Source of the DNA: a virus
IMG/VR virus record: IMGVR_UViG_3300028027_000225
Coordinates: 1 to 25,006 of that record
Strand: one strand, 5' to 3'
Length of the DNA: 25,006 nt
In this document: positions 664-25,006 of the stretch, in pieces
Layout: every line of letters starts with the position of its first letter
How positions within the stretch are numbered: the first letter of the stretch is position 1
Translations under genes and position numbers: made by a program
The notes under the pieces: generated by a model
Database searches by the model: none
What the model saw: only the letters and a program-made list of their open reading frames with translations
Told to the model about the DNA's origin: nothing

Positions 664-2364
664 ATGCCAACAACTATTGTATCACCAGGGGTAGCCATTA
701 ACGTAAACGATAATTCTGCAGTAACTTCCCAACCAATACAAGCGGGAGCAGCCATCATCGGACCAACAGTTAAAGGACCTGTAGGTATCCCAACCGTAGT
801 AACTACATATAGTGAATATCAAAATAAATTTGGAGATACATTAGTAAGTGGATCTCAAACATATTCATACTTGACGTCAATTTCAGCGTATAATTACTTC
901 AACAACGGAGGTAGTTCACTTCTAGTTACTCGCGTTGTAAGTGGCTCATTTACACCTGCTACAGCATCTATTCAAACAGCATTCGTATTAGAAACATTAT
1001 CCGAAGGCGAAATCATGAACAGTGTTGGTGCTGAAATCAGCGGTTCACTAGTAAGCGGATCTGCCGATAACTACAGATGGCAAATCACATCACCAAACAC
1101 GGCATCAGGTACATTCTCGCTACTAATTAGAAAAGGAGACGATTCAGCATCATCACCATCTATACTTGAGGCATACAACAACCTATCGCTAGATCCATTC
1201 TCGCCAAACTACATTGAAAAAATCGTTGGTAATACTACCGAAAACGTATCTGAAGACAACGGTGAATTTTACCTTGAACTAACTGGTAGTTACTTAAACA
1301 ATTCAAAATGCGTTCGTGTTAAACAAGTACTTACACCTACACCAAACTATTTAGACAACAACGGTTTAGCAAAACCACAATACACTAGTTCCATCCCTAC
1401 TTTAGCTAGTGGATCATTCGGTGGAGCAACAGGTAAAAACATACCAACTGGAACCGCAGCCAAATACTACGAGGCAATTAGTGATACAAATACACAAGGT
1501 TTACCAGCATCAGCATATACACAATCAATTGCATTATTAGCAAATAAAGATTCATACCGATTCAATTTCATCACTGTTCCAGGTTTAATTGGACGTAATT
1601 CATTCACTAACCACTACAACGTTATCAACACTAAATTGATACCTATGGTTACTGAACGTGGTGATACAATGGCTATAGTTGATGTAGTTGAATATGGTCA
1701 AAATTTAACCACTACAGTTAACGCAGCCGCAGCATTCGATACATCATTCGTAGCAACATATTGGCCTTGGGCTCAAACAATTGATCCAGCAACTGGACAA
1801 AACGTATGGGTACCTGCATCCACATTAATACCAGGTGTATATATGGCTAGTGACAGAGTTTCGTACCCATGGATAGCACCAGCTGGTACTAACAGAGGTG
1901 TTGTAACTAACGTAACTCGTGTTGAACGCGTAGTTACACAAAGCGGAAGAGACGCGCTATACGAAGCAAACGTAAACCCATTAGCAACACTACCAGGATA
2001 TGGTGTAGTTGTATATGGTCAGAAAACGCTACAAAAGAAAAATACCGCATTGGATCGTGTAAACGTTAGACGTTTATTAATCGAATTAAATAACTACATT
2101 GGTCAAATAGCACAATCATTAGTATTTGAACAAAATACAGCAAGTACACGTAATGAATTTTTAGCACAAGTAAATCCATATTTATCTACTATACAACAAC
2201 AACAAGGTCTGTACGACTTTAATGTAGTAATGGACGATACGAACAACACACCAACCGTAATAGACAACAACCAATTAGTAGGACAAATATATATCCAGCC
2301 AACAAAAACATCCGAATTTATATTACTGGAATTCAATATCCTACCAACTGGAGTAACAATTTAG
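664..2364 (+). CDS. Tail sheath protein, copy 1 (T4 gp18 family)
   Basis: A 566-residue sheath subunit that would polymerise around the tail tube and contract on infection. The N-terminus has the sheath hallmark SPGVAINVND followed by AAIIGPTVKGP, which begins the conserved beta-rich core. The C-terminal third carries VNPLATLPGYGVVVYGQKTL, RVNVRRLLIEL and LVGQIYIQPTKTSEFILLEF, the conserved subdomain that contacts the tube and interlocks neighbouring subunits in contractile sheaths. The middle is Ser/Thr/Asn-rich and variable, as expected for surface-exposed domains. It is slightly shorter than T4 gp18 (659 residues). A paralogue follows after 54 nt and has its own TATTTATA element, so the two could be expressed at different levels. 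Confidence 0.93.
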   Translation: MPTTIVSPGVAINVNDNSAVTSQPIQAGAAIIGPTVKGPVGIPTVVTTYSEYQNKFGDTLVSGSQTYSYLTSISAYNYFNNGGSSLLVTRVVSGSFTPATASIQTAFVLETLSEGEIMNSVGAEISGSLVSGSADNYRWQITSPNTASGTFSLLIRKGDDSASSPSILEAYNNLSLDPFSPNYIEKIVGNTTENVSEDNGEFYLELTGSYLNNSKCVRVKQVLTPTPNYLDNNGLAKPQYTSSIPTLASGSFGGATGKNIPTGTAAKYYEAISDTNTQGLPASAYTQSIALLANKDSYRFNFITVPGLIGRNSFTNHYNVINTKLIPMVTERGDTMAIVDVVEYGQNLTTTVNAAAAFDTSFVATYWPWAQTIDPATGQNVWVPASTLIPGVYMASDRVSYPWIAPAGTNRGVVTNVTRVERVVTQSGRDALYEANVNPLATLPGYGVVVYGQKTLQKKNTALDRVNVRRLLIELNNYIGQIAQSLVFEQNTASTRNEFLAQVNPYLSTIQQQQGLYDFNVVMDDTNNTPTVIDNNQLVGQIYIQPTKTSEFILLEFNILPTGVTI

Positions 2365-2418: not shown

Positions 2419-4161
2419 ATGGGAAACTTTACAATATCTCCAGGAGTAACATTAAACGAGCTAGATAATTCATATCTATCAGGTCAGCCTATTCAGGTTG
2501 GTGCCGCTATAATTGGCCCAACAGTTAAGGGACCAGTTGAGGTTCCAACTGTAGTTACATCTTATTCAGAATACAAAAACGTATTCGGTGACATCATCAC
2601 TAGTGGAAGTGATGTTTATTCTTATTTCACATCAATTGCTGCATACAATTACTTCAACTACGGTGGTCAATCATTGCTAGTTGCTCGTGTTGTGTCTGGT
2701 TCATATGCTCCAGCTACATCATCTGTCATTGCAAATGATTCAGCATATGTGTTTGACGGTTATGTTAGTTCTTCATACGTAGCAGGCGGTGGAGTAAATG
2801 TATTCCAACTTGAAACACTAAGTGAAGGTGTAGACCAAAACAACGCAACATTAGGTACATCTGGTAGCTTAACTTTAGGCACAGCAAATAATATTCGATT
2901 TGAAATTTCATCACCAAACACAGCATCAGGTACATTTAATGTAATTGTTCGTCAAGGTAACGACAAGACAAACAAGAAAGTGGTACTTGAAGCATTCAAC
3001 GGTGTAAACTTAGATCCAAAATCACCAAACTACATTGCACGTGTAATTGGCGATACTAAATTAAACTACAACCCATCAACACTACAGATGGAATTCAGTG
3101 GTTCTTACCCTAACGCATCAAAATACATTCGTGTAGCTGCAGTTAACTCAACAACACCTGACTATTTAGACACAAACGGTCAACCAAAAACAGGATACGC
3201 AGCAAAAATACCAGCAGCACAATTAGGTGTATTTGGTGGCGCTACAGGTACTGTTAAAGGAGGTGCTAATTTCTACGATGCAATTAACTCATCAAACACA
3301 CAAGGTTTAGTTGCAGACAACTACACAAACATGATTAATCTATTGTCAAACAAAGACGAATATAGATTCAACATATTAACTACACCAGGTTTAACTAACG
3401 ACTTACACACATCAACAATATCTACAATTATCACCAACACACAAAACCGTGGAGACAATTTATATATCGTTGATTTAACTGATTACAATTCAACAGTCAG
3501 TGAAGCAGTCGCTCAAGCACAGACACGCGATAATTCATACGCAACTACTTACTGGCCATGGTGTAACATGATCGACCCAGCAACTGGAAAATACGTTTGG
3601 GTTCCTGCATCTACATTAATACCAGGTGTATACGCAAACAACGACAAAATTGCTGCTCCTTGGTTCGCACCAGCGGGTATCAACAGAGGTGGTTTAAACA
3701 ACGTATCTCGCGCTCAATACAAATTGTCTCAAGCACAAAAAGACGAATTGTACTTAAGCAACATCAACCCATTAGCAACAATGCCAAAAGTTGGTGTAGT
3801 AATTTATGGACAAAAAACGCTACAAAAAGGTACATCCGCACTAGACAGAGTAAACGTTAGACGTTTATTAATCGAATTGAAAGGATATATCGGTCAATTA
3901 GCAGACAACATCGTATTCGAACAAAACACAGAACGTACACGTTCATTGTTCTTGTCCCGTGTTAACCCATACTTAGAAAACATCCAACAAAAACAAGGTT
4001 TGTACGCATTCCGTATCGTAATGGATGACACTAATAATGGCCCAGATGTTATCGACAGAAACCAATTAGTAGGACAAATTTACATTCAACCAACTAAAAC
4101 AGCAGAATTTATTTCACTTGATTTCATTGTATTACCAACTGGAGCAGAATTTCCTGGGTAA
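2419..4161 (+). CDS. Tail sheath protein, copy 2 (T4 gp18 family)
   Basis: A 580-residue sheath paralogue. The N-terminus (SPGVTLNELDNSYLSGQPIQ then AAIIGPTVKGPV) and C-terminus (NPLATMPKVGVVIYGQKTL, RVNVRRLLIEL, DRNQLVGQIYIQPTKT) closely match copy 1. The middle differs much more and has an extra stretch near residues 95-125. Both conserved ends are intact with no frameshift, so this is a working paralogue and not a decaying duplicate. It may form a heteromeric sheath with copy 1, cap one end, or replace it; the sequence does not say which. The tail tube gene follows after 47 nt, the usual sheath-tube order. Confidence 0.93.
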   Translation: MGNFTISPGVTLNELDNSYLSGQPIQVGAAIIGPTVKGPVEVPTVVTSYSEYKNVFGDIITSGSDVYSYFTSIAAYNYFNYGGQSLLVARVVSGSYAPATSSVIANDSAYVFDGYVSSSYVAGGGVNVFQLETLSEGVDQNNATLGTSGSLTLGTANNIRFEISSPNTASGTFNVIVRQGNDKTNKKVVLEAFNGVNLDPKSPNYIARVIGDTKLNYNPSTLQMEFSGSYPNASKYIRVAAVNSTTPDYLDTNGQPKTGYAAKIPAAQLGVFGGATGTVKGGANFYDAINSSNTQGLVADNYTNMINLLSNKDEYRFNILTTPGLTNDLHTSTISTIITNTQNRGDNLYIVDLTDYNSTVSEAVAQAQTRDNSYATTYWPWCNMIDPATGKYVWVPASTLIPGVYANNDKIAAPWFAPAGINRGGLNNVSRAQYKLSQAQKDELYLSNINPLATMPKVGVVIYGQKTLQKGTSALDRVNVRRLLIELKGYIGQLADNIVFEQNTERTRSLFLSRVNPYLENIQQKQGLYAFRIVMDDTNNGPDVIDRNQLVGQIYIQPTKTAEFISLDFIVLPTGAEFPG

Positions 4162-5220: not shown

Positions 5221-5949
5221 ATGAGTGAATTTAAAATCCCTACTGAAACAGTAGAGTTACCGTCCAAAGGACTATTGTACCCTAAAGATTCAGAGTTAGC
5301 TAAAGGTGTAGTTGAAGTTAAATACATGACTGCAGCACACGAAGACATCTTAACTAACCAAACGTACATCAAAAACGGTACCGTATTGGACAAGTTAATC
5401 AAAGCATTAATTGTTAGTCCAATTAACTACGACGATTTACTAATTGGTGACAAAAACGCAATCATGGTTGCTGCCCGCGTATTAGGTTACGGAAGTGAAT
5501 ATAAATTCACATACGGTGGTGTAGACCAAACAGTTGATTTAGCTGCATTAGACAACAAACCAGTACACGAGGCAATTGAAAAAGCAGACAAAAACGAATT
5601 TGAGTACGTGTTACCATACACTAAAAACACAATCACATTCAAACTATTAACACACAAAGACGAACAAGACATCCAGCGCGAACTAGACGGTTTGAAAAAA
5701 ATCAACAAAGACTCATCACCAGAACTATCCACACGTTGGAAATACATCATCACTTCGGTGGAAGGTAGACGCGAAAAGAAAGACATCCGCGAGTTCGTTG
5801 ACAACTACTTGATCGCTAAAGATTCACGCGCGTTACGCGAATATATTCGCGAATTACAACCGGATGTTGATTTAACATTCCACGTTGATGGCGCTGACGA
5901 CAAAGTAAACATTCCGATTGGTATTAGTTTCTTCTGGCCAGATATTTAA
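5221..5949 (+). CDS. T4 gp26-like baseplate hub / assembly protein
   Basis: A 242-residue soluble protein. The N-terminal segment VELPSKGLLYPKDS matches the LPSxGxxY opening of the T4 gp26-type base plate family, which also includes proteins encoded just before the tape measure in many T4-like phages. The middle is an alpha/beta region (MTAAHEDILTNQ, LIKALIVSP) and the C-terminus ends in IGISFFWPDI. In T4, gp26 takes part in hub assembly. A role as a tail assembly chaperone is also possible, because the gene and its neighbour (5956) occupy the slot directly upstream of the tape measure. The next start codon follows the stop after two codons in the same frame. Confidence 0.6.
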   Translation: MSEFKIPTETVELPSKGLLYPKDSELAKGVVEVKYMTAAHEDILTNQTYIKNGTVLDKLIKALIVSPINYDDLLIGDKNAIMVAARVLGYGSEYKFTYGGVDQTVDLAALDNKPVHEAIEKADKNEFEYVLPYTKNTITFKLLTHKDEQDIQRELDGLKKINKDSSPELSTRWKYIITSVEGRREKKDIREFVDNYLIAKDSRALREYIRELQPDVDLTFHVDGADDKVNIPIGISFFWPDI

Positions 5950-6327: not shown

Positions 6328-8748
6328 ATGGCTGACTCAAATAAAGACATACGAGACACAAATGACTTACTACGCGAGCAATTAGAATTACTTAAACAAG
6401 TAAAAGACCTTCAGCAAGACTCATACGATGTATCTGCAGCTGCTGTTGATTCAATTAAAGAGGCTTTGGGTATTAATTCACGTCGTTCTACATTTGAATC
6501 TGCTACTTTAAAAACTAACAAATCGATCGCCCAAGCTATACTGGACCAAAAAACAGGGCTGCGCGATTTAGAATCTATTGGCCGTCAAATTAACAAAAAC
6601 CAGGATTTACTAAACAAGGCGAAAATAATTGAGAATGGCCTTACTAATAACTTGGGAGGGACCGATTTAAGTAGACTTTCTACATTCATCGAAATATATC
6701 AAGCTCAACAAAACCTTATACATGAGTTAGAAACAGCACATAATTTATCGTTAAGTGAAATTCAAAACAAACAACTAGCAATCAAACTTAATGATGAATT
6801 GTTAGACCAGCTCACCCAACAAATGGGTGTCCATGAACTTCAATTAGCATACACTAAACTAAATACATCTGAGCTAGAAAAGCAGCAAGACCTACGCAAA
6901 ACCGAATTAGGCATCCAGCAACAACTAGAAGAACAGTTAGGGTTAGTTGGTAAAATTGCTAAAACATTTGGTCATTTTAAAGGAATATCTGAAGATGTAA
7001 ACAAAGCACTAGCCGATACTACCAAGGAAATGCAACGAATGGCTACCGAAGGGGGTAAAGTAATTGGTAAATGGCAATCATTTGGTATGTTTGTGAGTAA
7101 TTTAGGTAAAAACCTAACCAAACATCTCACGGACCCATTAGTAATATTAACATCATTCGTTAGTGTCTTCAAAGACATAGACTCAGGAGCTGGTAATTTT
7201 GCCAAATCCATGAACATAACGTACAGCGACGCATTAAATGTACGTGGAGAAATGGCTGATCTTGCCTCATTGTCCGGTGATGTTGCATTAAATTCTAAAA
7301 ATTTACAAGAATCGTTAGGTTACATTAACCAACAACTAGGTACCAACGGAAAATTATCCGAGCAAGACCTAATCACATTTACCAAACTGCGTGAACAATC
7401 TGGACTAACCAATGAACAGTTGTTCGCTATGCAAAAATACACCATGGCTACTGGTGGTACATTAGAAGACAACGTAGCAACATTCCAGGCAACATCTAAA
7501 ATATTATCATACCAAAACAAAGTATCCATTAACACCAAACAATTAATGGTGGATATGGGTAATGTTTCAAACCGAACCAAGTTATCCATTGAGGGCGGAG
7601 CCGAAGGTTTAGCCAAAGCAGCATTTAATGCTAAATTAATGGGTGGTAATTTGGAACAAGTAGCGGCAATTGCGGACCAATTACTCAATTTTGAGTCATC
7701 CATTGAGGCTGAATTATCCGCTGAACTATTAACCGGTAAAGACATTACGCTAGAAAAAGCGAGACAAGCCGCGTTAAACAACGATTTAGCCACAGTTGCA
7801 TCGGAAATCACGGACCAAATAGGTTCCGCAGCTAAATACAGCGAAATGAACCGAATCCAGCAAGAAGCAATGGCTAAAGCCGTTGGTATGAATGCGGATC
7901 AGTTAGCGGATGTATTAGTTGAGCAAGAAGCAATCCGCGCCATAGGTGGTAAGTTAAGCGACGACGAACAACGTGCATTTGAAACAGCTAAGGGAAGATA
8001 TGGTCTTGAGCAAGCATCCAAAATGCTGAAAGAAGGACAGTTAGACCAATTAGTTGACCAGCAATCAATCCAGGACCGATTTAACCAATCCGTAGAAAAA
8101 CTCAAAGACATATTTGTGTCATTGGCTGAACCAGTATTGCAAGTAGTTTCACCTATAGTTAATTTAGTAAATCTGCTTGGTTCAATTCCTGGTTTGCTTC
8201 AAGGCATAATTGGTGGGTTTACTGCAATAAAATTACTTCAAATAGCTATAGGGGCACAAGAAAAAGTAAACATTGGTCTGCAAGCAACCATGAACTTAAT
8301 GAAGGGCAAAGAGCTAATTACCCAAATAGGTATAGCTACCGCATGGGCTTTAGCTAACCCATTCCAAGCAGCCCTTGGTATAGGAGCAGCAGCTGTTATA
8401 GGATCATCCATATATTCAGCTATGAAAGGAGCAACTCCCGTAGGTGATTTTAATTACTCAAACAAAACAGGTGAAACAACTATATCTACTAAAGAGGGGG
8501 GTCTATACTCCATATCAGACAATGATGAAATAGCAGTAGCACCTCGAATCAATACCAGATTGTCATCCCCACCTTCCCCCCAACCTACACAAGATAATTC
8601 AGCATTAATAGCTGAACTGCGGGCAATGCGTAGTATATTTGAAAAAAACCAAAACCGACCGATTTATACTGAGGTTAAAGTTGATGGTGAAAAAATTGCA
8701 ACTGCAACAAATGATAACAACCGTAAGAACAGTTACGCAATATCATAA
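6328..8748 (+). CDS. Tail tape measure protein
   Basis: An 806-residue protein that sets tail length and is expelled on infection. Residues 1-250 are long charged/Gln-rich helices (coiled coil, for example KQQDLRKTELGIQQQLEEQL). Residues about 280-590 form a helical domain with many Ala/Gln segments (for example LEKARQAALNNDLATVASEI). Residues about 597-704 are hydrophobic and could form two or three membrane-inserting helices (IVNLVNLLGSIPGLLQGIIG; FQAALGIGAAAVIGSSIYSA), as expected of a tape measure that enters the inner membrane. A short segment GLYSISDNDEIAVAP and a polar tail follow. It is the longest helical protein in the tail cluster and sits downstream of presumed chaperone genes, which supports the call. 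T4 gp29 is shorter (590 residues). Confidence 0.87.
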   Translation: MADSNKDIRDTNDLLREQLELLKQVKDLQQDSYDVSAAAVDSIKEALGINSRRSTFESATLKTNKSIAQAILDQKTGLRDLESIGRQINKNQDLLNKAKIIENGLTNNLGGTDLSRLSTFIEIYQAQQNLIHELETAHNLSLSEIQNKQLAIKLNDELLDQLTQQMGVHELQLAYTKLNTSELEKQQDLRKTELGIQQQLEEQLGLVGKIAKTFGHFKGISEDVNKALADTTKEMQRMATEGGKVIGKWQSFGMFVSNLGKNLTKHLTDPLVILTSFVSVFKDIDSGAGNFAKSMNITYSDALNVRGEMADLASLSGDVALNSKNLQESLGYINQQLGTNGKLSEQDLITFTKLREQSGLTNEQLFAMQKYTMATGGTLEDNVATFQATSKILSYQNKVSINTKQLMVDMGNVSNRTKLSIEGGAEGLAKAAFNAKLMGGNLEQVAAIADQLLNFESSIEAELSAELLTGKDITLEKARQAALNNDLATVASEITDQIGSAAKYSEMNRIQQEAMAKAVGMNADQLADVLVEQEAIRAIGGKLSDDEQRAFETAKGRYGLEQASKMLKEGQLDQLVDQQSIQDRFNQSVEKLKDIFVSLAEPVLQVVSPIVNLVNLLGSIPGLLQGIIGGFTAIKLLQIAIGAQEKVNIGLQATMNLMKGKELITQIGIATAWALANPFQAALGIGAAAVIGSSIYSAMKGATPVGDFNYSNKTGETTISTKEGGLYSISDNDEIAVAPRINTRLSSPPSPQPTQDNSALIAELRAMRSIFEKNQNRPIYTEVKVDGEKIATATNDNNRKNSYAIS

Positions 8749-19522: not shown

Positions 19523-20548
19523 ATGAAGAAAAATCTACTTAACCTACTTGACAATATCCAGGAAAACCAGGAAACACCAACTTACGAACGCTACATGCTA
19601 ATAGATTCATTAAATCTGTTCTTCCGCAATTTCAGCGCCATAAACGCAGTTAATTCAAACGGAGTCCATATCGGCGGGTTAGGTGGTTTTTTCCGCTCAT
19701 TGGGCGCGTTAATACGCCAAATACAACCAACACAAATCATCATGGTATTTGATGGTATTGGTTCATCCACATCCCGTAAAAACATTATTCCCGAATACAA
19801 GTCGGGGAGAAATGTTACCCGTGTAACCAAACACGAGTTATTTGACAATATCGACGAGGAAGACGAAGCAAAAATCGGCCAAATCGTTCGCATCATCCAA
19901 TACTTAAAAACACTCCCGGTTAAAACCATTACCTTGGGTAATGTTGAGGCAGATGATGTTATCGCATATCTGTCAGGTACATTGCCTAAACACGAGAACG
20001 ATCGTGTATTCATAGTATCCAGCGACAAAGACTATTTACAGCTGATTACGCGCCAAGTAATCGTTTATCGTCCAATTGAACGTGAATTCTATACTGAGGA
20101 AACGGTACGTGAAAAATTCAACCTTGACCCGCATAACTTCATACTATACAAGACACTACTAGGTGATGCCTCGGATGCATTACCGGGCATCAAAGGACTT
20201 GGTGCTGGGAAACTATTCAAGTTATTCCCCGAACTAAGTTCACACCCACTCACATTTGAAGACATACTTGAAATCAGTGAGCGCAACATTAAAGAACACG
20301 TAATATACGCAAGAGTGCTACACGATGTAGAACTACTTGAAAACAAATACAAAATCATGGACTTATCCAATCCCATGATGACCGATCAAGACAAACGCGA
20401 CGTTGACAATTTAATCCAGAACACACCACTTGAATTTCACCCTGAGGCATTCGTGGAAATGTACCACGAGGACCAGTTGGGCGGTTTAATTAGAAATGTA
20501 GACTACTGGATACAAGATACATTTAAAGATTTGTTGGACAACCAATAA
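19523..20548 (+). CDS. 5'-3' exonuclease / flap nuclease (T4 RNase H-like)
   Basis: A 341-residue FEN/PIN-domain nuclease that removes RNA primers and 5' flaps. Metal-binding acidic residues are in order: Asp28 (MLIDSLNLFFRNF), Asp77 (IIMVFDGIGSS, followed by a basic patch SRKNIIPEYKSGRN), Glu142, Asp144 and Asp145 (NVEADDVIAYL), Asp168 and Asp170 (VSSDKDYLQ), and Asp215 and Asp218 (LGDASDALPG). The latter start the helix-hairpin-helix (PGIKGLGAGKLFKLF). It is a little longer than T4 RNase H (305). It starts 11 nt after uvsX and would complete lagging-strand processing together with the polymerase and the gp32-like protein. Confidence 0.9.
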   Translation: MKKNLLNLLDNIQENQETPTYERYMLIDSLNLFFRNFSAINAVNSNGVHIGGLGGFFRSLGALIRQIQPTQIIMVFDGIGSSTSRKNIIPEYKSGRNVTRVTKHELFDNIDEEDEAKIGQIVRIIQYLKTLPVKTITLGNVEADDVIAYLSGTLPKHENDRVFIVSSDKDYLQLITRQVIVYRPIEREFYTEETVREKFNLDPHNFILYKTLLGDASDALPGIKGLGAGKLFKLFPELSSHPLTFEDILEISERNIKEHVIYARVLHDVELLENKYKIMDLSNPMMTDQDKRDVDNLIQNTPLEFHPEAFVEMYHEDQLGGLIRNVDYWIQDTFKDLLDNQ

Positions 20549-20568
20549 ATCATTCGTACATTTAATAC

Positions 20569-20581
20569 AAATAAAAGTTAT
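20569..20581 (+). promoter_or_regulatory. AAATAAAAGTTAT element before the helicase gene
   Basis: AAATAAAAGTTAT is preceded by ATTCGTAC at 20552-20559, the same pairing of short motifs as before uvsX. Promoter or translation-leader role not resolved. Confidence 0.35.
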
Positions 20582-20586
20582 ATAAT

Positions 20587-21951
20587 ATGGCAGCACTCCA
20601 ATCAATGGAAGAATATGGCGTTCCCTTTCAAATGAAAGTTATTTCGTCGTTACTCAACCACAAAGAATTCTTGCAAAACATCCACGATGTGCTTACCGAA
20701 GAACACTTTAGCAACCCGGCACACAAATGGATCATTGGTGAAATATTGGGCTACTACGGCAAGTATCACACAACTATATCAATGGACATGTTGAAAGTGG
20801 AAATGAAGAAACTCGACAACGATGTACTTAAAGTATCCATCCGCGAACAACTTCGTGAAGCATACAAAACAGATGTATCCGATTTGCCGTATGTACAGGA
20901 AGAATTCAGCACATTCTGCAAAAACCAGCAACTTAAAAAAGCATTGCTATCCAGTGTAGATTTACTTAAAGCTGGTGACTACGAATCAATCAAGTACATG
21001 ATTGAATCCGCAATGAAAGCCGGACAAGACAAGAACATCGGCCACGAATACAAACGCGACACTGAATCGAGATACCGTGAAGACCACAGAAAAACTGTAC
21101 CTACACCATGGGAACAAATCAACGAATTAATCCAGGGTGGTATTGGTAACGGCGATTTAGGACTTATATTTGGTGGTCCTGGTGGTGGTAAATCGTGGAC
21201 ATTAGTAGCCATGGGTGGATTGGCCGTTAAAATGGGATACAACGTTATCCACTACACACTGGAACTAAGCGAAGCATATACCGGTAGACGTTACGATGCG
21301 TTCTTCACTGGCGTTGATGTTGACCAATTAGACAAACACAAGGAAAAAGTGGAGGAAATCACCTCACAACTACCTGGTGAATTAATCATTCGTGAATTTG
21401 CAATGGGTAAAACAACCATGTCCACTATTGAGTCACACATCAATAAAGTAAGGGAAATGGGCATTGAGCCAGACTTAATCATCATTGACTACTTAGATCT
21501 ACTTGCAAGTAAAAAACGAAACACAGACACTAAAGGCGAAATAGACGATATTTATACTAGCGCAAAAGGCCTTGCTCGCCAAATGAACATACCTATTTGG
21601 TCGGTGTCGCAGGTGAACAGAGCTGGTGCAAAAGATAGCGTTATTGAAGGCGACAAAGCCGCAGGTAGTTATGCAAAAATGGCCGTAGCCGACTTATGTA
21701 TGTCGCTATCAAGAAAGAAAGAAGACAAAGTAAACGGTACTGGACGACTACACATCATGAAAAACAGATATGGTGGCGACGGTATGACTTACGAAGTTGA
21801 CATTAACACTAAAACAGGACACATAGTAATTGGGGATGCATACGATGAGGAAGCAGATACGGTACCAGCTAGACAAAACCGTAAATTTGAGGACTTCGAC
21901 AATTTGGACAAGCAATTACTTCGTGAGAAATTTTTTGAACTAAACACATAA
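20587..21951 (+). CDS. Replicative DNA helicase (DnaB family, T4 gp41-like)
   Basis: A 454-residue hexameric helicase that unwinds the fork 5' to 3'. The N-terminal domain (residues 1-150, including DVLTEEHFSNPAHKWIIGEI) is the DnaB-type primase-interacting helical bundle. The RecA-like motor has Walker A FGGPGGGKSWT (Lys202), Walker B LIIIDYLDLL (Asp301), and the DnaB motif IPIWSVSQVNRAG. The C-terminal acidic/Lys-rich tail is short. Size and motifs match T4 gp41 (475 residues). No primase gene is in the window. The next gene starts two bases after its stop. Confidence 0.92.
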   Translation: MAALQSMEEYGVPFQMKVISSLLNHKEFLQNIHDVLTEEHFSNPAHKWIIGEILGYYGKYHTTISMDMLKVEMKKLDNDVLKVSIREQLREAYKTDVSDLPYVQEEFSTFCKNQQLKKALLSSVDLLKAGDYESIKYMIESAMKAGQDKNIGHEYKRDTESRYREDHRKTVPTPWEQINELIQGGIGNGDLGLIFGGPGGGKSWTLVAMGGLAVKMGYNVIHYTLELSEAYTGRRYDAFFTGVDVDQLDKHKEKVEEITSQLPGELIIREFAMGKTTMSTIESHINKVREMGIEPDLIIIDYLDLLASKKRNTDTKGEIDDIYTSAKGLARQMNIPIWSVSQVNRAGAKDSVIEGDKAAGSYAKMAVADLCMSLSRKKEDKVNGTGRLHIMKNRYGGDGMTYEVDINTKTGHIVIGDAYDEEADTVPARQNRKFEDFDNLDKQLLREKFFELNT

Positions 21952-21953
21952 AC

Positions 21954-22472
21954 ATGGAATCGCTATCCACACTAATAGCCAGAGTATACCAAACCCAGTG
22001 CAACCACTATTCAAGCATAGACGAGCAAGTGGCTGCTACTGAACACTACATACTAAACGAAATCACGCAATGGGGTATACAAGTTAAATCGGCCCCAGGC
22101 ATGGTAACTTTTATTCCTGTTGGAAGTGATTTGGCTTCCCAATTTGAAGTTCGTTTATTGTACAAATCGAATTCGGATATGTGGGAGTTAAAATTTGGCA
22201 ATTTATCTGCAAATAGTGAAGAAGCGATGTACACATGGGAATCGACGGACCGATTGCAAAAAGCATTATTCGTGCGTGAGGTACTAGAGAAATACGTTGT
22301 ACCCGCATTAGAAAACGATACCCTCAATGGCATTGAATTCAGACCATATGCTGGTGACGGGTTAGAAAGCGATCGACTAAGTTACTTTAAAAATATGTAC
22401 AACAAATTAGCAAAATCAAAATATGTTATGTCTCAAGAAGGCAGCACATACTACATAACTAAACATATATAA
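21954..22472 (+). CDS. Unknown 172-residue protein between helicase and nrdB
   Basis: No family recognised. It starts two bases after the helicase stop (TAAACATG) and ends four bases before nrdB, so it is translated within the replication operon. The N-terminal half is helical (STLIARVYQTQCNHY, EHYILNEITQWG), the middle alternates strands (FEVRLLYKSNSDMWELKFGN), and the C-terminus has RLSYFKNMYNKLAKSKYVMS. No signal or membrane segment and no obvious metal-binding cluster. An accessory replication role is plausible from its position only. Confidence 0.7.
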   Translation: MESLSTLIARVYQTQCNHYSSIDEQVAATEHYILNEITQWGIQVKSAPGMVTFIPVGSDLASQFEVRLLYKSNSDMWELKFGNLSANSEEAMYTWESTDRLQKALFVREVLEKYVVPALENDTLNGIEFRPYAGDGLESDRLSYFKNMYNKLAKSKYVMSQEGSTYYITKHI

Positions 22473-22476
22473 AATT

Positions 22477-23430
22477 ATGGCATTAACAGAACCACGTTTA
22501 CATTACAAACCATTTGAATACCAAATAGCAGACGACTATTTCGAAAAACAACACTCCGCACACTGGTTAGCGAGCGAGGTACCATTAGCATCTGATTTAG
22601 CTGATTGGCATGGTAAACTAACTGAAAGTGAGAAAAATTTGCTGGGCAACATATTAAAATCATTCGCACAAACTGAAACATGCGTAAACGATTACTGGTC
22701 AACCAAAGTATCGCTATGGTTTCCTGTATTTGAAATCCAGTCCATGGCTAGAGCATTCGCTGACTTCGAGTCAATTCATGCAAAGGCTTACGCACGCCTA
22801 AACGAGGAACTTGGTTTAGACGATTTCTCCGCGTTCTTGGAAGACGAAACAGCAAAAAACAAAATTGACCATTTAGTTGAAACATCTGGTGAAACGTTAC
22901 ACGATAAAGCCGTGTCATTGGCTGTATTTTCGGCGTTTACTGAGGGAGTAAATTTATTCTCATCATTTGCCGTGCTCATGTCGTTCCAATTGCGTAATTT
23001 AATGAAAGGAACAGGGCAAATAGTAGCATGGTCTGTGCGTGATGAATCGTTACACTCACAAGCGGGATGTTGGTTATTCAGAACACTAATTGAGGAAAAC
23101 GAGCATTTGAACACACCAGAACTATCCCAAGCAATATATGATGCTTGTAGTGCGTCTGTGCAATTGGAATTCGATTTCATCGACAAAGCATTTGAAATGG
23201 GCGATATCGAAGGGCTATCGACTTCACAATTGAAAAATTTCATCAAGGAACGCGCCAACCAAAAACTAATTGAACTTGGGTTTAAACCACTATACAACGA
23301 CATTAATCCAAACCTGTTGAAACAAATGGAATGGTTCGGCCACTTAACCAGTGGTGTTGAGCAGCAAGATTTCTTTGCGCAAAGACCAACGGCATATGCC
23401 AAATCTACCGCAGATTGGAGCGACTTATAA
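22477..23430 (+). CDS. nrdB: Ribonucleotide reductase class I small (beta) subunit NrdB
   Basis: A 317-residue di-metal/tyrosyl-radical subunit. The ligand set is complete: Glu67 (SFAQTETCVND), Glu98 and His101 (FADFESIHAKAY), Glu156 (FTEGVNLF), Glu190 and His193 (VRDESLHSQ). Tyr105 lies at the spacing of the E. coli radical Tyr122. It generates the radical passed to NrdA for reduction of ribonucleotides to deoxynucleotides. It is shorter than E. coli NrdB (375), mainly at the N-terminus. The C-terminal tail, which docks on NrdA in this family, is present (AYAKSTADWSDL). Two small genes separate it from nrdA. Confidence 0.93.
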   Translation: MALTEPRLHYKPFEYQIADDYFEKQHSAHWLASEVPLASDLADWHGKLTESEKNLLGNILKSFAQTETCVNDYWSTKVSLWFPVFEIQSMARAFADFESIHAKAYARLNEELGLDDFSAFLEDETAKNKIDHLVETSGETLHDKAVSLAVFSAFTEGVNLFSSFAVLMSFQLRNLMKGTGQIVAWSVRDESLHSQAGCWLFRTLIEENEHLNTPELSQAIYDACSASVQLEFDFIDKAFEMGDIEGLSTSQLKNFIKERANQKLIELGFKPLYNDINPNLLKQMEWFGHLTSGVEQQDFFAQRPTAYAKSTADWSDL

Positions 23431-23451
23431 TTAAGCAAAAACAAAATAAAC

Positions 23452-23574
23452 ATGAAACCAAAAAAACAATTAACCGAGGCTGAACTAGCAGCAATAGATA
23501 AAGACATCCAGTTCATTCAACAAAGTATTGACCGAGCTAAAAAACGATTGAAACAATATGGAAAAATTAAGTAA
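23452..23574 (+). CDS. Very small basic helical protein (40 residues)
   Basis: A 40-codon frame starting AAACATG 21 nt after nrdB, with TAA at 23572-23574. The protein is lysine-rich and predicted as one long amphipathic helix (LTEAELAAIDKDIQFIQQ). It overlaps the next gene by 17 bases, a link that argues for translation. A leader AAAATAAACATG like those of other genes here supports it. No function recognised. It could be a chance frame, but the operon layout favours a gene. Confidence 0.55.
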   Translation: MKPKKQLTEAELAAIDKDIQFIQQSIDRAKKRLKQYGKIK

Positions 23575-23836
23575 ATTAATAGCTGAGGTCCTAGCATCAA
23601 CCTATATTAAAAATATCAGAACAATGATGTCTCAAATAAATTGGGAGGGAATTGAAGACGATTTCTCTAACCTTTATCAATCATCCAACATATTGATACG
23701 TAATATAGAAAATATAGGAGAATATGATGGTGAAGACCCTCAACAAAGGTTAAGGACATTAAAAAACCAAGCAAGCAGTATTTCATTCGTACTAAAGAAT
23801 TTGCTAGAACTTCAAAAACAAAACAAACATATATGA
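23558..23836 (+). CDS. Small helical protein upstream of nrdA
   Basis: A 92-residue protein that overlaps the 40-residue frame at its start and nrdA at its end (ATGA, 23833-23836). The first 18 residues form an amphipathic helix (MEKLSKLIAEVLASTY), similar in style to the N-terminal helices at 4805 and 17077. The rest is helical with an acidic turn (ENIGEYDGEDPQQRLRTLKN). No family recognised. The double overlap shows translational coupling with nrdA, so it may be an accessory to the reductase, or simply a small gene of the same operon. Confidence 0.65.
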   Translation: MEKLSKLIAEVLASTYIKNIRTMMSQINWEGIEDDFSNLYQSSNILIRNIENIGEYDGEDPQQRLRTLKNQASSISFVLKNLLELQKQNKHI

Positions 23837-24945
23837 GCAAAATAAACGTAGATACATCAAACTGGGTGAAAGGCAAAGACTACCCGGCGTGGCTCGATCA
23901 AATTGGTATGGCCACCATTTCACAAGGCTACTTACTGCCACACGAAAATGTATTCAAAGCATTCACACGTGTATCTAAAGCAGCATCTCGCCGCCTTAAA
24001 CGTAAGGACTTGCAGCAATACTTCTACGAAGCAATGGAGAAAAATTGGCTTTGCCTTGCATCACCAGTGCTATCCAATTTAGGTACGGAACGCGGAATGC
24101 CTATTTCATGCTTCGGTATTGATACACATGATTCCATTGACGGTATCGCATTAGCTAACGCTGAATTAATGCGTTTGGGTGCTTCCGGTGGTGGTGTTGG
24201 TATTGGTGTATCCCGCATCAGAGGACGTGGTAAAGAAATATCCGGCAACGGTGTGAGCGAGGGTGTTGTTCCGTGGTGCAAGATATTTGATTCTACCATC
24301 CTAGCAACAAACCAGGGTTCCGTTAGACGTGGTGCTGCATCAGTTAACCTTTCAGTTAACCACCCAGACATCGAGGAATTTCTTGGCATTAGACGACCAA
24401 AAGGAGACGTAAATAGACAATGTCTGAATTTGCACCAATGTGTTGTAATTGACGATTCATTCATGAACCGAGTTGAGGCGAAAGATCCACACGCACAGAA
24501 AATTTGGGGCGAGATACTAAAAACACGCCTTGAAACCGGTGAACCATATCTTATGTTTGAGGACAATGTAAACAATGCAAACCCGCAAGCATATAAGAAT
24601 TTCAATTTGAACGTGTCAATGACCAATATATGTGTGACTGGCGATACTAAAATCACTATCAAAACTGGCGACACCATTCAAGACATAGAGATACACAACC
24701 TGGAATACCATTTACATACCAACCCAGAAGTGTACATTTTGAGTTACAATACTGACACCAATGCACAAGAATTTAAACTAGTAACTAATTTTGGCTTGAC
24801 CCACCCAGACGCAGAATTGTTGGAAATCGAGGACGAGTCAACTGGATTTAAATTGCAATGTACACCTGAGCATAAAATCTTAACTAAAAACCGTGGTTGG
24901 GTTGAGGCACAACATTTAACTGAAGAAGATGAGCTTATATACTAA
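23833..24945 (+). CDS. nrdA: Ribonucleotide reductase large subunit NrdA, N-terminal part fused to an N-intein
   Basis: A 370-residue product: residues 1-266 are the N-terminal part of the class I reductase alpha subunit and 267-370 an intein fragment. In the reductase part, SNLGTERGMPISCF carries Cys93, the counterpart of a redox cysteine (E. coli Cys225); the barrel start follows (LGASGGGVGIGVSRIRGRGK, NQGSVRRGAASVNLSV). The fragment ends at NVSMTNI, exactly before the radical cysteine of the N-x-C-x-E-I motif. Only 266 residues precede it, against 438 in E. coli, and no N-terminal ATP-cone is visible, so dATP feedback may be missing. Without trans-splicing to a C-terminal half the product cannot be active. 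The C-terminal half is not in the window. Confidence 0.9.
   Translation: MSKINVDTSNWVKGKDYPAWLDQIGMATISQGYLLPHENVFKAFTRVSKAASRRLKRKDLQQYFYEAMEKNWLCLASPVLSNLGTERGMPISCFGIDTHDSIDGIALANAELMRLGASGGGVGIGVSRIRGRGKEISGNGVSEGVVPWCKIFDSTILATNQGSVRRGAASVNLSVNHPDIEEFLGIRRPKGDVNRQCLNLHQCVVIDDSFMNRVEAKDPHAQKIWGEILKTRLETGEPYLMFEDNVNNANPQAYKNFNLNVSMTNICVTGDTKITIKTGDTIQDIEIHNLEYHLHTNPEVYILSYNTDTNAQEFKLVTNFGLTHPDAELLEIEDESTGFKLQCTPEHKILTKNRGWVEAQHLTEEDELIY
24631..24942 (+). other. Split intein, N-terminal fragment (104 residues), in nrdA
   Basis: The intein starts with Cys267 (block A, CVTGDTKITI) and includes VYILSYNTDTNAQEFKLVTN and block B (CTPEHKILTKNRGWV, with TxxH). It ends EEDELIY and a TAA stop. At 104 residues it matches the N-halves of natural split inteins (Npu DnaE-N is 102), which stop at the same point. 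Similar split inteins in NrdA are known from phage-like marine metagenomic sequences. No endonuclease domain is inside it. The C-half (about 35-45 residues, ending HN before Cys) should lie downstream of 25006. Confidence 0.85.
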
Positions 24946-25006
24946 ACAACACTACACTGAAAAAATCCCTACCTCTCGCGGGCGATTTATGGGTCTACAC
25001 AAAGAC
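24929..25006 (+). CDS. Start of an unknown ORF overlapping the N-intein end; runs off the window
   Basis: An ATG at 24929 opens a frame that overlaps the last 17 bases of nrdA and is still open after 26 codons at the end of the window. It begins MSLYTKQHYTEKIP and continues SRGRFMGLHKD; a second ATG is at 24989. It is in a different frame from nrdA. Placement between two intein halves is where free-standing homing endonuclease genes are inserted in known fractured genes, so this may be such a gene. It could also be the C-intein plus NrdA C-half, whose C-inteins can begin MGLK. Too little is visible to decide. Confidence 0.5.
   Translation, partial: MSLYTKQHYTEKIPTSRGRFMGLHKD

What the first reader, a model, noticed from the sequence alone, without database searches (positions are those of the whole stretch)
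24631..24945. NrdA is fractured by a split intein exactly at its radical cysteine
The sequence shows NrdA stopping after 266 reductase residues plus a 104-residue intein with block A (CVTGDTKITI) and block B (CTPEHKIL). It is broken immediately before the catalytic Cys of the reductase. Ending at the natural split point argues for a trans-splicing intein and not a decayed gene. The reductase would be inactive until two polypeptides are joined, which makes dNTP supply depend on trans-splicing. Split NrdA inteins have been described from metagenomic data; a full phage context with a likely host would be valuable.
Basis: partly seen in the sequence, partly recalled or inferred. Interest (0 to 1): 0.85.

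Follow-up and report, generated by a model that had tools for sequence, protein, structure and literature searches.

The report
Phage enzyme gene split by intein
A phage, probably of Flavobacterium-like hosts, carries its DNA-building-block enzyme gene in two pieces, each tipped with half of a self-splicing protein element, so the two proteins are probably stitched together right at the enzyme's catalytic cysteine; the arrangement is real and belongs to a known but uncommon kind, with an unexplained small companion gene as its newest part.

Summary
NrdA residues 1-266 run into a 104-residue class 1 N-intein (24631-24942) and a stop. The window is the whole record and ends 61 bases later. Another viral contig (L003), 99.98% identical over the last 5,379 bases, continues it: a small gene (ORF109) starting inside the end of the N-half gene, a GIY-YIG homing-endonuclease gene, then a 34-residue C-intein ending HN followed by Cys-Ser-Glu-Ile and the rest of NrdA. 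The joint falls just before the equivalent of E. coli Cys439. Eighteen contigs share this layout; 80 intein-less relatives and Flavobacterium phage immuto read TNI-CSEI uninterrupted there. Intein and exteins are under purifying selection, and the module is younger at synonymous sites than nrdA, as for a mobile element. This is a 'fractured gene' split intein, a known kind (ocean nrdA cases; AceL NrdHF with a GIY-YIG gene in the gap). New are the phage context, the swapping and loss of endonucleases, and ORF109, present in all 18 gaps, kept where the endonuclease is lost, its only other relative found also lying in an nrdA gap. Splicing itself is untested.

The parts
23833..24630 (+). NrdA N-extein (residues 1-266, ends ...NVSMTNI)
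   Evidence: PF00317 and PF02867 over cut-off; matches to the alpha-subunit models NF006577 and TIGR02510, below their whole-protein cut-offs as expected of a half
24631..24942 (+). N-intein, 104 residues (C1, block B TPEH), class 1
   Evidence: TIGR01445 37.5 bits, cut-off 24.5; profile match to NrdJ-1 intein 8ubs E 5.4e-17; Cys1, Thr and His of block B invariant in the 12 sequences of A3
24943..24945 (+). stop codon that ends the N-half; at the same place in 18 contigs
   Evidence: shown
24929..25006 (+). first 26 codons of ORF109 (106-residue companion gene), ATG 17 nt inside the end of the N-half gene, +1 frame, cut by the contig end; whole in L003:5302-5619
   Evidence: found only at these 18 loci
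22477..23430 (+). nrdB, small subunit of the same reductase, directly upstream
   Evidence: PF00268 2.8e-60

Best explanation
A naturally split, trans-splicing class 1 intein sits in the phage nrdA gene between the codons for Ile266 and the thiyl-radical cysteine (E. coli Cys439). The N-half protein (NrdA 1-266 + 104-aa IntN) and the C-half protein (34-aa IntC + about 309 further residues) are made separately, the intein halves associate, and the class 1 reaction (Cys1 thioester, Cys+1 branch, Asn cyclisation) joins Ile266 to the catalytic Cys, so the cysteine that serves as splicing nucleophile then becomes the radical cysteine. The gap between the halves carries a GIY-YIG homing-endonuclease gene (in L003) that would cut intein-less nrdA and copy the module in mixed infections, plus a conserved 106-residue gene, ORF109, of unknown role. 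Shown: both halves, the splice-site residues, the gap genes, the empty sites, purifying selection and lower synonymous divergence of the module. Inferred: splicing in trans, homing, co-expression.
For: Both halves in overlapping contigs of one phage. IntN and IntC over the NCBIfam cut-offs. Cys+1 = residue 439 of the NrdA chains (33-347 aligned to 438-759; the 2xay and 2xaz rows start 34 to 439). 80 of 80 relatives kept, and phage immuto, have uninterrupted TNI-CSEI. Contiguous mini-inteins at the same site in L061, L069, L071, L073, L080. Median dN/dS 0.088 for IntN, 0.092 for IntC, 0.137 and 0.068 for stretches of the exteins (11 loci, 39-55 usable pairs of 55). Median pS: extein 0.62, intein 0.46, ORF109 0.26; intein below extein in 34 of 36 pairs, ORF109 in 35 of 36 (9 loci); endonuclease C-terminus 0.40 against 0.64 for distal C-extein, lower in 63 of 66 pairs (12 loci), nrdB 0.64 (8 loci). 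In L003 GIY-YIG, NUMOD3 and TIGR01453 are over cut-off.
Against: No experiment. The C-half is not in the window record itself but in an overlapping contig of the same collection. Pfam's intein model stays below its cut-off for both halves. In the 8 pairs that involve L003 (the window's phage) the module is nearly as diverged as the flanks (N-intein 0.61-0.77, C-intein 0.41-0.66, ORF109 0.63-0.89; exteins 0.71-0.82), so the signal of recent movement comes from the other phages. The endonuclease and C-intein stretches are lower in G+C (0.29 and 0.31 against 0.34), which may account for part of the lower pS; G+C of N-intein and ORF109 was not computed. Pairs are not independent. The intein tree is poorly resolved (1 of 21 inner branches starred, 18 open), so the number of independent splits is unknown.
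Confidence: 0.93

Rival explanations
1. The gene is a decaying relic: an intein-bearing nrdA broken by endonuclease insertion, no longer spliced, with the host reductase doing the work.
For: Endonucleases do decay at this locus (none of 60 aa or more in L012; an 87-aa remnant in L013, L015, L016).
Against: Intein halves and exteins show median dN/dS of 0.07-0.14 over 11 loci, and Cys1, the block B Thr and His, the C-terminal His-Asn and Cys+1 are invariant in the aligned sequences. Both halves stay open in the 18 contigs as far as each contig reaches.
Confidence: 0.04
2. The two polypeptides assemble non-covalently into an active reductase without splicing, as reported for the split NrdA of phage Aeh1.
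For: Aeh1 NrdA, split by a mobE insertion, is reported as fully functional from two polypeptides (PMC2988022, passages).
Against: Here each half ends in a conserved intein half with intact catalytic residues; that would be pointless without splicing, and the unspliced tails would sit at the active-site cysteine (inference).
Confidence: 0.03
3. Sequencing or assembly error that broke one contiguous intein.
For: The window record ends just after the stop.
Against: L003 and 17 further contigs show the same stop, with genes in the gap. The 17-nt overlap of N-half stop and ORF109 ATG is the same in the window and in all 10 loci displayed (L005 and L009, where another gene lies between, were not among them).
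Confidence: 0.01

Closest known systems
Fractured genes with split inteins from Global Ocean Sampling (Dassa et al. 2009; paper not held; its 7 nrdA and 2 nrdJ cases are cited in PMC3653736, passages read)
   Same: Enzyme gene cut in two by an intein with an endonuclease gene between the halves, mainly phage; nrdA among them (arrangement recalled from the abstract)
   Different: GIY-YIG endonucleases here in place of the Vsr-like family recalled for half of the original loci; a conserved companion gene, ORF109, in every gap of this type; a cultured relative points to Flavobacterium-type hosts. Whether any of the original nrdA cases uses the same insertion point could not be checked
AceL NrdHF split intein (PMC7891396, passages read)
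   Same: Reductase gene fractured by a split intein with an intervening GIY-YIG endonuclease, phage-like contig, IntN 98 aa and IntC 48 aa
   Different: AceL is class 3 (Ala1) in the beta subunit; this one is class 1 (Cys1) in the alpha subunit at the radical cysteine
NrdJ-1 split intein (PDB 8ubs)
   Same: Only sequence match to the N-intein profile among solved structures at E 0.01, E 5.4e-17 over profile positions 20-104
   Different: Class II reductase extein (recalled)
Contiguous NrdA inteins at the same site, e.g. L061, L069, L080; probably Caulobacter phage Karma (L025)
   Same: Insertion before the Cys439 equivalent; for Karma only the N-junction (SNL|C) and the tblastn coverage (query 19-362) were seen
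   Different: Unsplit; Karma's intein is annotated as 307 residues
Phage Aeh1 split nrdA with mobE (PMC2988022, passages read)
   Same: nrdA of a T4-like phage split by a homing-endonuclease gene
   Different: The PMC2988022 passages describe two functional polypeptides and no splicing; a figure legend of PMC3653736 instead calls the Aeh1 split an intein

Membership tests
Fractured-gene split intein | One conserved enzyme gene in two ORFs, each with half an intein at the break | tested here: met
Fractured-gene split intein | Free-standing endonuclease gene between the halves | tested here: met
   L003:5723-6571: GIY-YIG 22.9 bits (cut-off 22.6), NUMOD3 35.7 (20.4), TIGR01453 84.1 (56.05). In the wider family an endonuclease ORF with a catalytic domain is read in 14 of 18 contigs; of three more that were scanned, L007 passes GIY-YIG (23.1), L019 (22.0) and L005 (19.8) fall just short, and TIGR01453 is passed by L005 only. 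L012 shows none and L013, L015, L016 an 87-aa remnant
Fractured-gene split intein | Split at the usual endonuclease site of inteins (about 100 + 35-48 residues) | tested here: met
   104 + 34 residues; AceL 98 + 48
Fractured-gene split intein | Trans-splicing activity | not testable with these tools
   needs expression of both halves
Class 1 intein | Cys1, block B TxxH, C-terminal His-Asn, Cys/Ser/Thr at +1 | tested here: met
   Cys1, Thr and His of block B invariant in A3 (12 sequences, window first); His33, Asn34, Cys35 invariant in A2 (10 sequences, L003 first)
Class I ribonucleotide reductase alpha subunit | All-alpha and barrel domains; radical cysteine | tested here: met
   best solved match of the C-half 6dqw, E 1.8e-72
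GIY-YIG homing endonuclease | Cuts the intein-less nrdA allele | not testable with these tools
   empty alleles exist; cleavage untested
Known fold for ORF109 | Clear structural match | tested here: inconclusive
   best model pLDDT 94.1, the other four 70.2-77.5; best VIA-align Z 5.0 (rmsd 3.9, 70 residues) to UvrB

The most novel reading that the evidence does not exclude
ORF109 is a dedicated partner of the fractured nrdA: a small protein, usually made by coupling to translation of the N-half (17-nt overlap), that chaperones or times trans-splicing, or stabilises the N-half until the C-half is made. It is in 18 of 18 gaps of this type and was found nowhere else but for one distant relative, itself in the nrdA gap of another phage (L059). 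It survives where the endonuclease is lost or truncated and is under purifying selection. Against it: in L005 and L009 another gene separates it from the N-half, and split copies with HNH genes lack it. That would be the first protein helper of a split intein known to me.
Probability: 0.15. Interest if true: 0.75.

Novelty: new member of a known kind. Interest (0 to 1): 0.45.

Why it matters
It gives a phage context for a split-intein reductase, with a family of 18 contigs in which the intein is constant while the endonuclease is swapped, truncated or lost. Split inteins are valued protein-engineering tools, and a phage group whose closest cultured relative (phage immuto) has the empty site offers a natural plus/minus pair to test intein homing and whether splicing limits dNTP supply. 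ORF109 is a concrete candidate for an accessory role; the literature searches made here were on split inteins, phages and reductases and showed nothing like it, but a nameless ORF cannot be searched for directly.

Tried and rejected
Rfam on L059 and 9 other loci: 0 matches at gathering score; the single sub-threshold hit on L059 1-700 (24.7 bits, gathering 72.1) was taken as chance. ORF109 (L003 copy) had no Pfam or NCBIfam match, one weak PHROG match at E 0.053, no match in 50,697 phage records at E 0.01, and none confirmed in genome contigs (139 pattern stretches, 0 confirmed). The viral-contig scans rest on short peptide patterns, so diverged copies can be missed; L059's copy was missed and found by reading its gap. 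Foldseek gave no match to the ORF109 model at E 0.001 in PDB or BFVD; the UvrB rows (Z at most 5.0) are too weak to use.

The intein tree was meant to count independent splits. It is unresolved (1 of 21 inner branches starred, 18 open) and is not used. Two rows (L025, L026) fell out of it because the end pattern in the script found no match; L060 was shortened in the middle.

The 80 loci were fetched with a query that included L059's C-intein and were at first taken for intein carriers; all 80 are intein-less.

Paper searches (terms on split inteins, nrdA, homing endonucleases, GIY-YIG, Flavobacterium phage) listed no paper on this phage group. Passages only were read of PMC3653736, PMC10448857, PMC7090010, PMC2988022, PMC8772380, PMC7891396, PMC12350094, PMC12707363 and PMC6370689. 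Dassa et al. 2009 is not held; what I say of its arrangement and endonuclease families is recalled.

In the counts, one search dropped pairs with pS of 0.7 or more (39-55 of 55 usable), one search used 9 of the loci (L008 for its copy L006; L005 with only 88-94 C-extein codons), one search took 14 loci and kept the 12 with a long C-extein, one search left out L008 as a copy of L006.

Full report
WHAT IS THERE. The ORF at 23833-24945 encodes 370 residues. Residues 1-266 are the first half of a class I ribonucleotide reductase alpha subunit (PF00317 and PF02867 over cut-off; NF006577 and TIGR02510 matched below their whole-protein cut-offs). Residues 267-370 are an N-intein of 104 residues with Cys1 and block B CTPEHKIL (TIGR01445 37.5 bits, cut-off 24.5). 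The Pfam intein model alone is below its cut-off (26.9 against 35.8). nrdB lies upstream at 22477-23430. The record is a 25,006-base virus record and ends 61 bases after the stop, so the window cannot show the other half.

THE OTHER HALF. A scan of viral contigs with the N-intein found 21 loci. L003, a 10.3-kb piece of a 43-kb contig, matches window 19628-25006 at 99.98% over 5,379 bases, so it is the same phage or a near-copy. It continues with ORF109 at 5302-5619, whose ATG lies 17 nt inside the end of the N-half gene; a GIY-YIG/NUMOD endonuclease frame that ends at 6571; and at 6578-7606 MALKITKVNTTKPVYDVTVQDNHNFYANGAVVHN|CSEISLYTDE followed by the rest of NrdA (TIGR01443 36.8 bits, cut-off 15.6).

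THE SITE. In the C-half of L021, a more distant phage with the same kind of split, residue 34 (the Cys after HN) aligns to residue 439 of the NrdA chains (that 2r1r, 2xay and the like are E. coli NrdA, and that Cys439 carries the thiyl radical, is recalled). A2 aligns that Cys with the Cys of L003 and 8 others, 10 of 10. In 80 of 80 intein-less relatives kept, and in Flavobacterium phage immuto, the same place reads TNICSEI without interruption. The intein therefore sits between Ile266 and the catalytic Cys.

THE FAMILY. Eighteen of the 21 loci (L003-L020) share N-half, ORF109 and C-half as far as each contig reaches. Several are near-copies (L006/L008/L011, L013/L015/L016, L017/L018/L019). 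L021/L022 are another phage with an HNH gene in the gap; L023 is a different, contiguous intein. A C-half scan (53 loci, many of them the same contigs) brought further split copies with HNH-like genes in the gap, judged by eye (L062, L066, L068, L074, L081; Pfam was run on L021's only), one with a gap of about 40 bases (L077), and contiguous inteins at the same site (L061, L069, L071, L073, L080; L060 with an in-frame HNH). So one insertion site holds empty, contiguous and split alleles.

IS IT ALIVE AND MOBILE. Median dN/dS over 11 loci is 0.137 (75 codons of N-extein), 0.088 (N-intein), 0.256 (ORF109), 0.092 (C-intein) and 0.068 (90 codons of C-extein), over the 39 to 55 of 55 pairs that were not saturated. 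With 9 loci, 256 codons of N-extein and up to 309 of C-extein, the median synonymous difference is 0.62 in exteins, 0.46 in intein and 0.26 in ORF109; intein is below extein in 34 of 36 pairs and ORF109 in 35 of 36. With 12 loci the endonuclease C-terminus is at 0.40 and distal C-extein at 0.64 (lower in 63 of 66 pairs), with nrdB at 0.64 in 8 loci. The drop is sharp at the intein edge (C-intein 0.41, next 100 codons of extein 0.61). This fits a module that has moved between nrdA genes since they diverged. It is weak for the window's own phage: pairs with L003 show ORF109 at 0.63-0.89. That also argues against a general constraint on synonymous sites as the cause of the low values elsewhere. 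Pairs are not independent, and lower G+C of the endonuclease and C-intein stretches (0.29 and 0.31 against 0.34) may add to the effect.

ENDONUCLEASES AND CARGO. An endonuclease ORF with a catalytic domain is read in 14 of 18 contigs. L012 has none of 60 aa or more, and L013/L015/L016 have an 87-aa C-terminal remnant. Four were scanned with Pfam: GIY-YIG is over cut-off in L003 and L007 and just below it in L019 and L005. Two front ends (the L003 type, and a SegE-like one as in L007 and L017, PF19835 below cut-off) share one C-terminal region. In L005 and L009 an extra GIY-YIG gene lies before ORF109. Extra genes in the gap differ from phage to phage; several start with a common MKKSELKQLIKEEI-like segment.

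ORF109. It is in 18 of 18 gaps of this type. A scan of viral contigs with its alignment returned exactly these 18 contigs; nothing was confirmed in genome contigs or found in phage records. A distant relative lies in the gap of L059 (hhalign E 7.7e-08, probability 94.5; hmmsearch E 9.1e-07 over 9,941 ORFs). The other split copies in the loci then held gave no hmmsearch match. The best AlphaFold model has pLDDT 94.1, the other four 70.2-77.5, with no convincing fold match. Its retention where the endonuclease is gone suggests a use of its own; what use is unknown.

HOST. The best phage-record match for NrdA (66.5% over 71% of the query), tail sheath (50.3%) and recombinase (55.0%) is in each case Flavobacterium phage immuto. 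The host is therefore probably a member of the Flavobacteriia or a near relative (inference).

KNOWN OR NEW. PMC3653736 (passages) reports 7 nrdA and 2 nrdJ interrupted by inteins in ocean metagenomes, citing Dassa et al. 2009 (not held). PMC7891396 (passages) describes AceL NrdHF, a fractured reductase gene with a GIY-YIG gene between the halves. PMC7090010 (passages) lists NrdA-2 from metagenomics as a reported intein. The finding is thus a well-supported new member of a known kind. ORF109 and the range of gap contents are the parts for which the searches showed no precedent, though Dassa et al. could not be read.

Noticed in passing
L003:5677-5829 and the same place in 11 other loci: In 12 of 12 endonuclease loci examined a short frame MGRIKKYQTE.ER...KYHERK precedes the GIY-YIG frame, which lies in the +1 register. 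It is the frame under selection in that stretch: pooled pN/pS 0.23 against 0.64 and 1.04 for the other two frames, 11 loci. The endonuclease may be made by +1 frameshifting or by re-initiation.
   Followed up: partly
L059:1-126: This contig starts in the gap of another fractured nrdA with what looks like the last codons of a TnpB-type gene and the 3' end of its guide RNA (recognised from memory; no Pfam or Rfam support; no second copy in viral contigs), followed by an ORF109 relative and the C-half: possibly an RNA-guided nuclease in a split-intein gap.
   Followed up: partly
L005:3592-4452, L010:884-1855, L012:5618-6286, L008:5618-6313: Variable cargo genes in the gap. Three look like ADP-ribosyltransferases by eye (only L012 has a weak Tox-ART-HYD1 hit, E 0.037); L008's carries DUF6576 over cut-off. 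Those of L008 and L010 start with the MKxxELKxxIKEEI segment also seen on other ORFs of these phages.
   Followed up: partly
window 664-2364 and 2419-4161: Two tail-sheath-like genes side by side, 55% identical.
   Followed up: no
window 23558-23836: A 92-aa ORF of unknown kind between nrdB and nrdA; its stop overlaps the nrdA start.
   Followed up: no
L077:4533-4905: N- and C-halves separated by only about 40 bases with no gene between: a split intein without any endonuclease.
   Followed up: no
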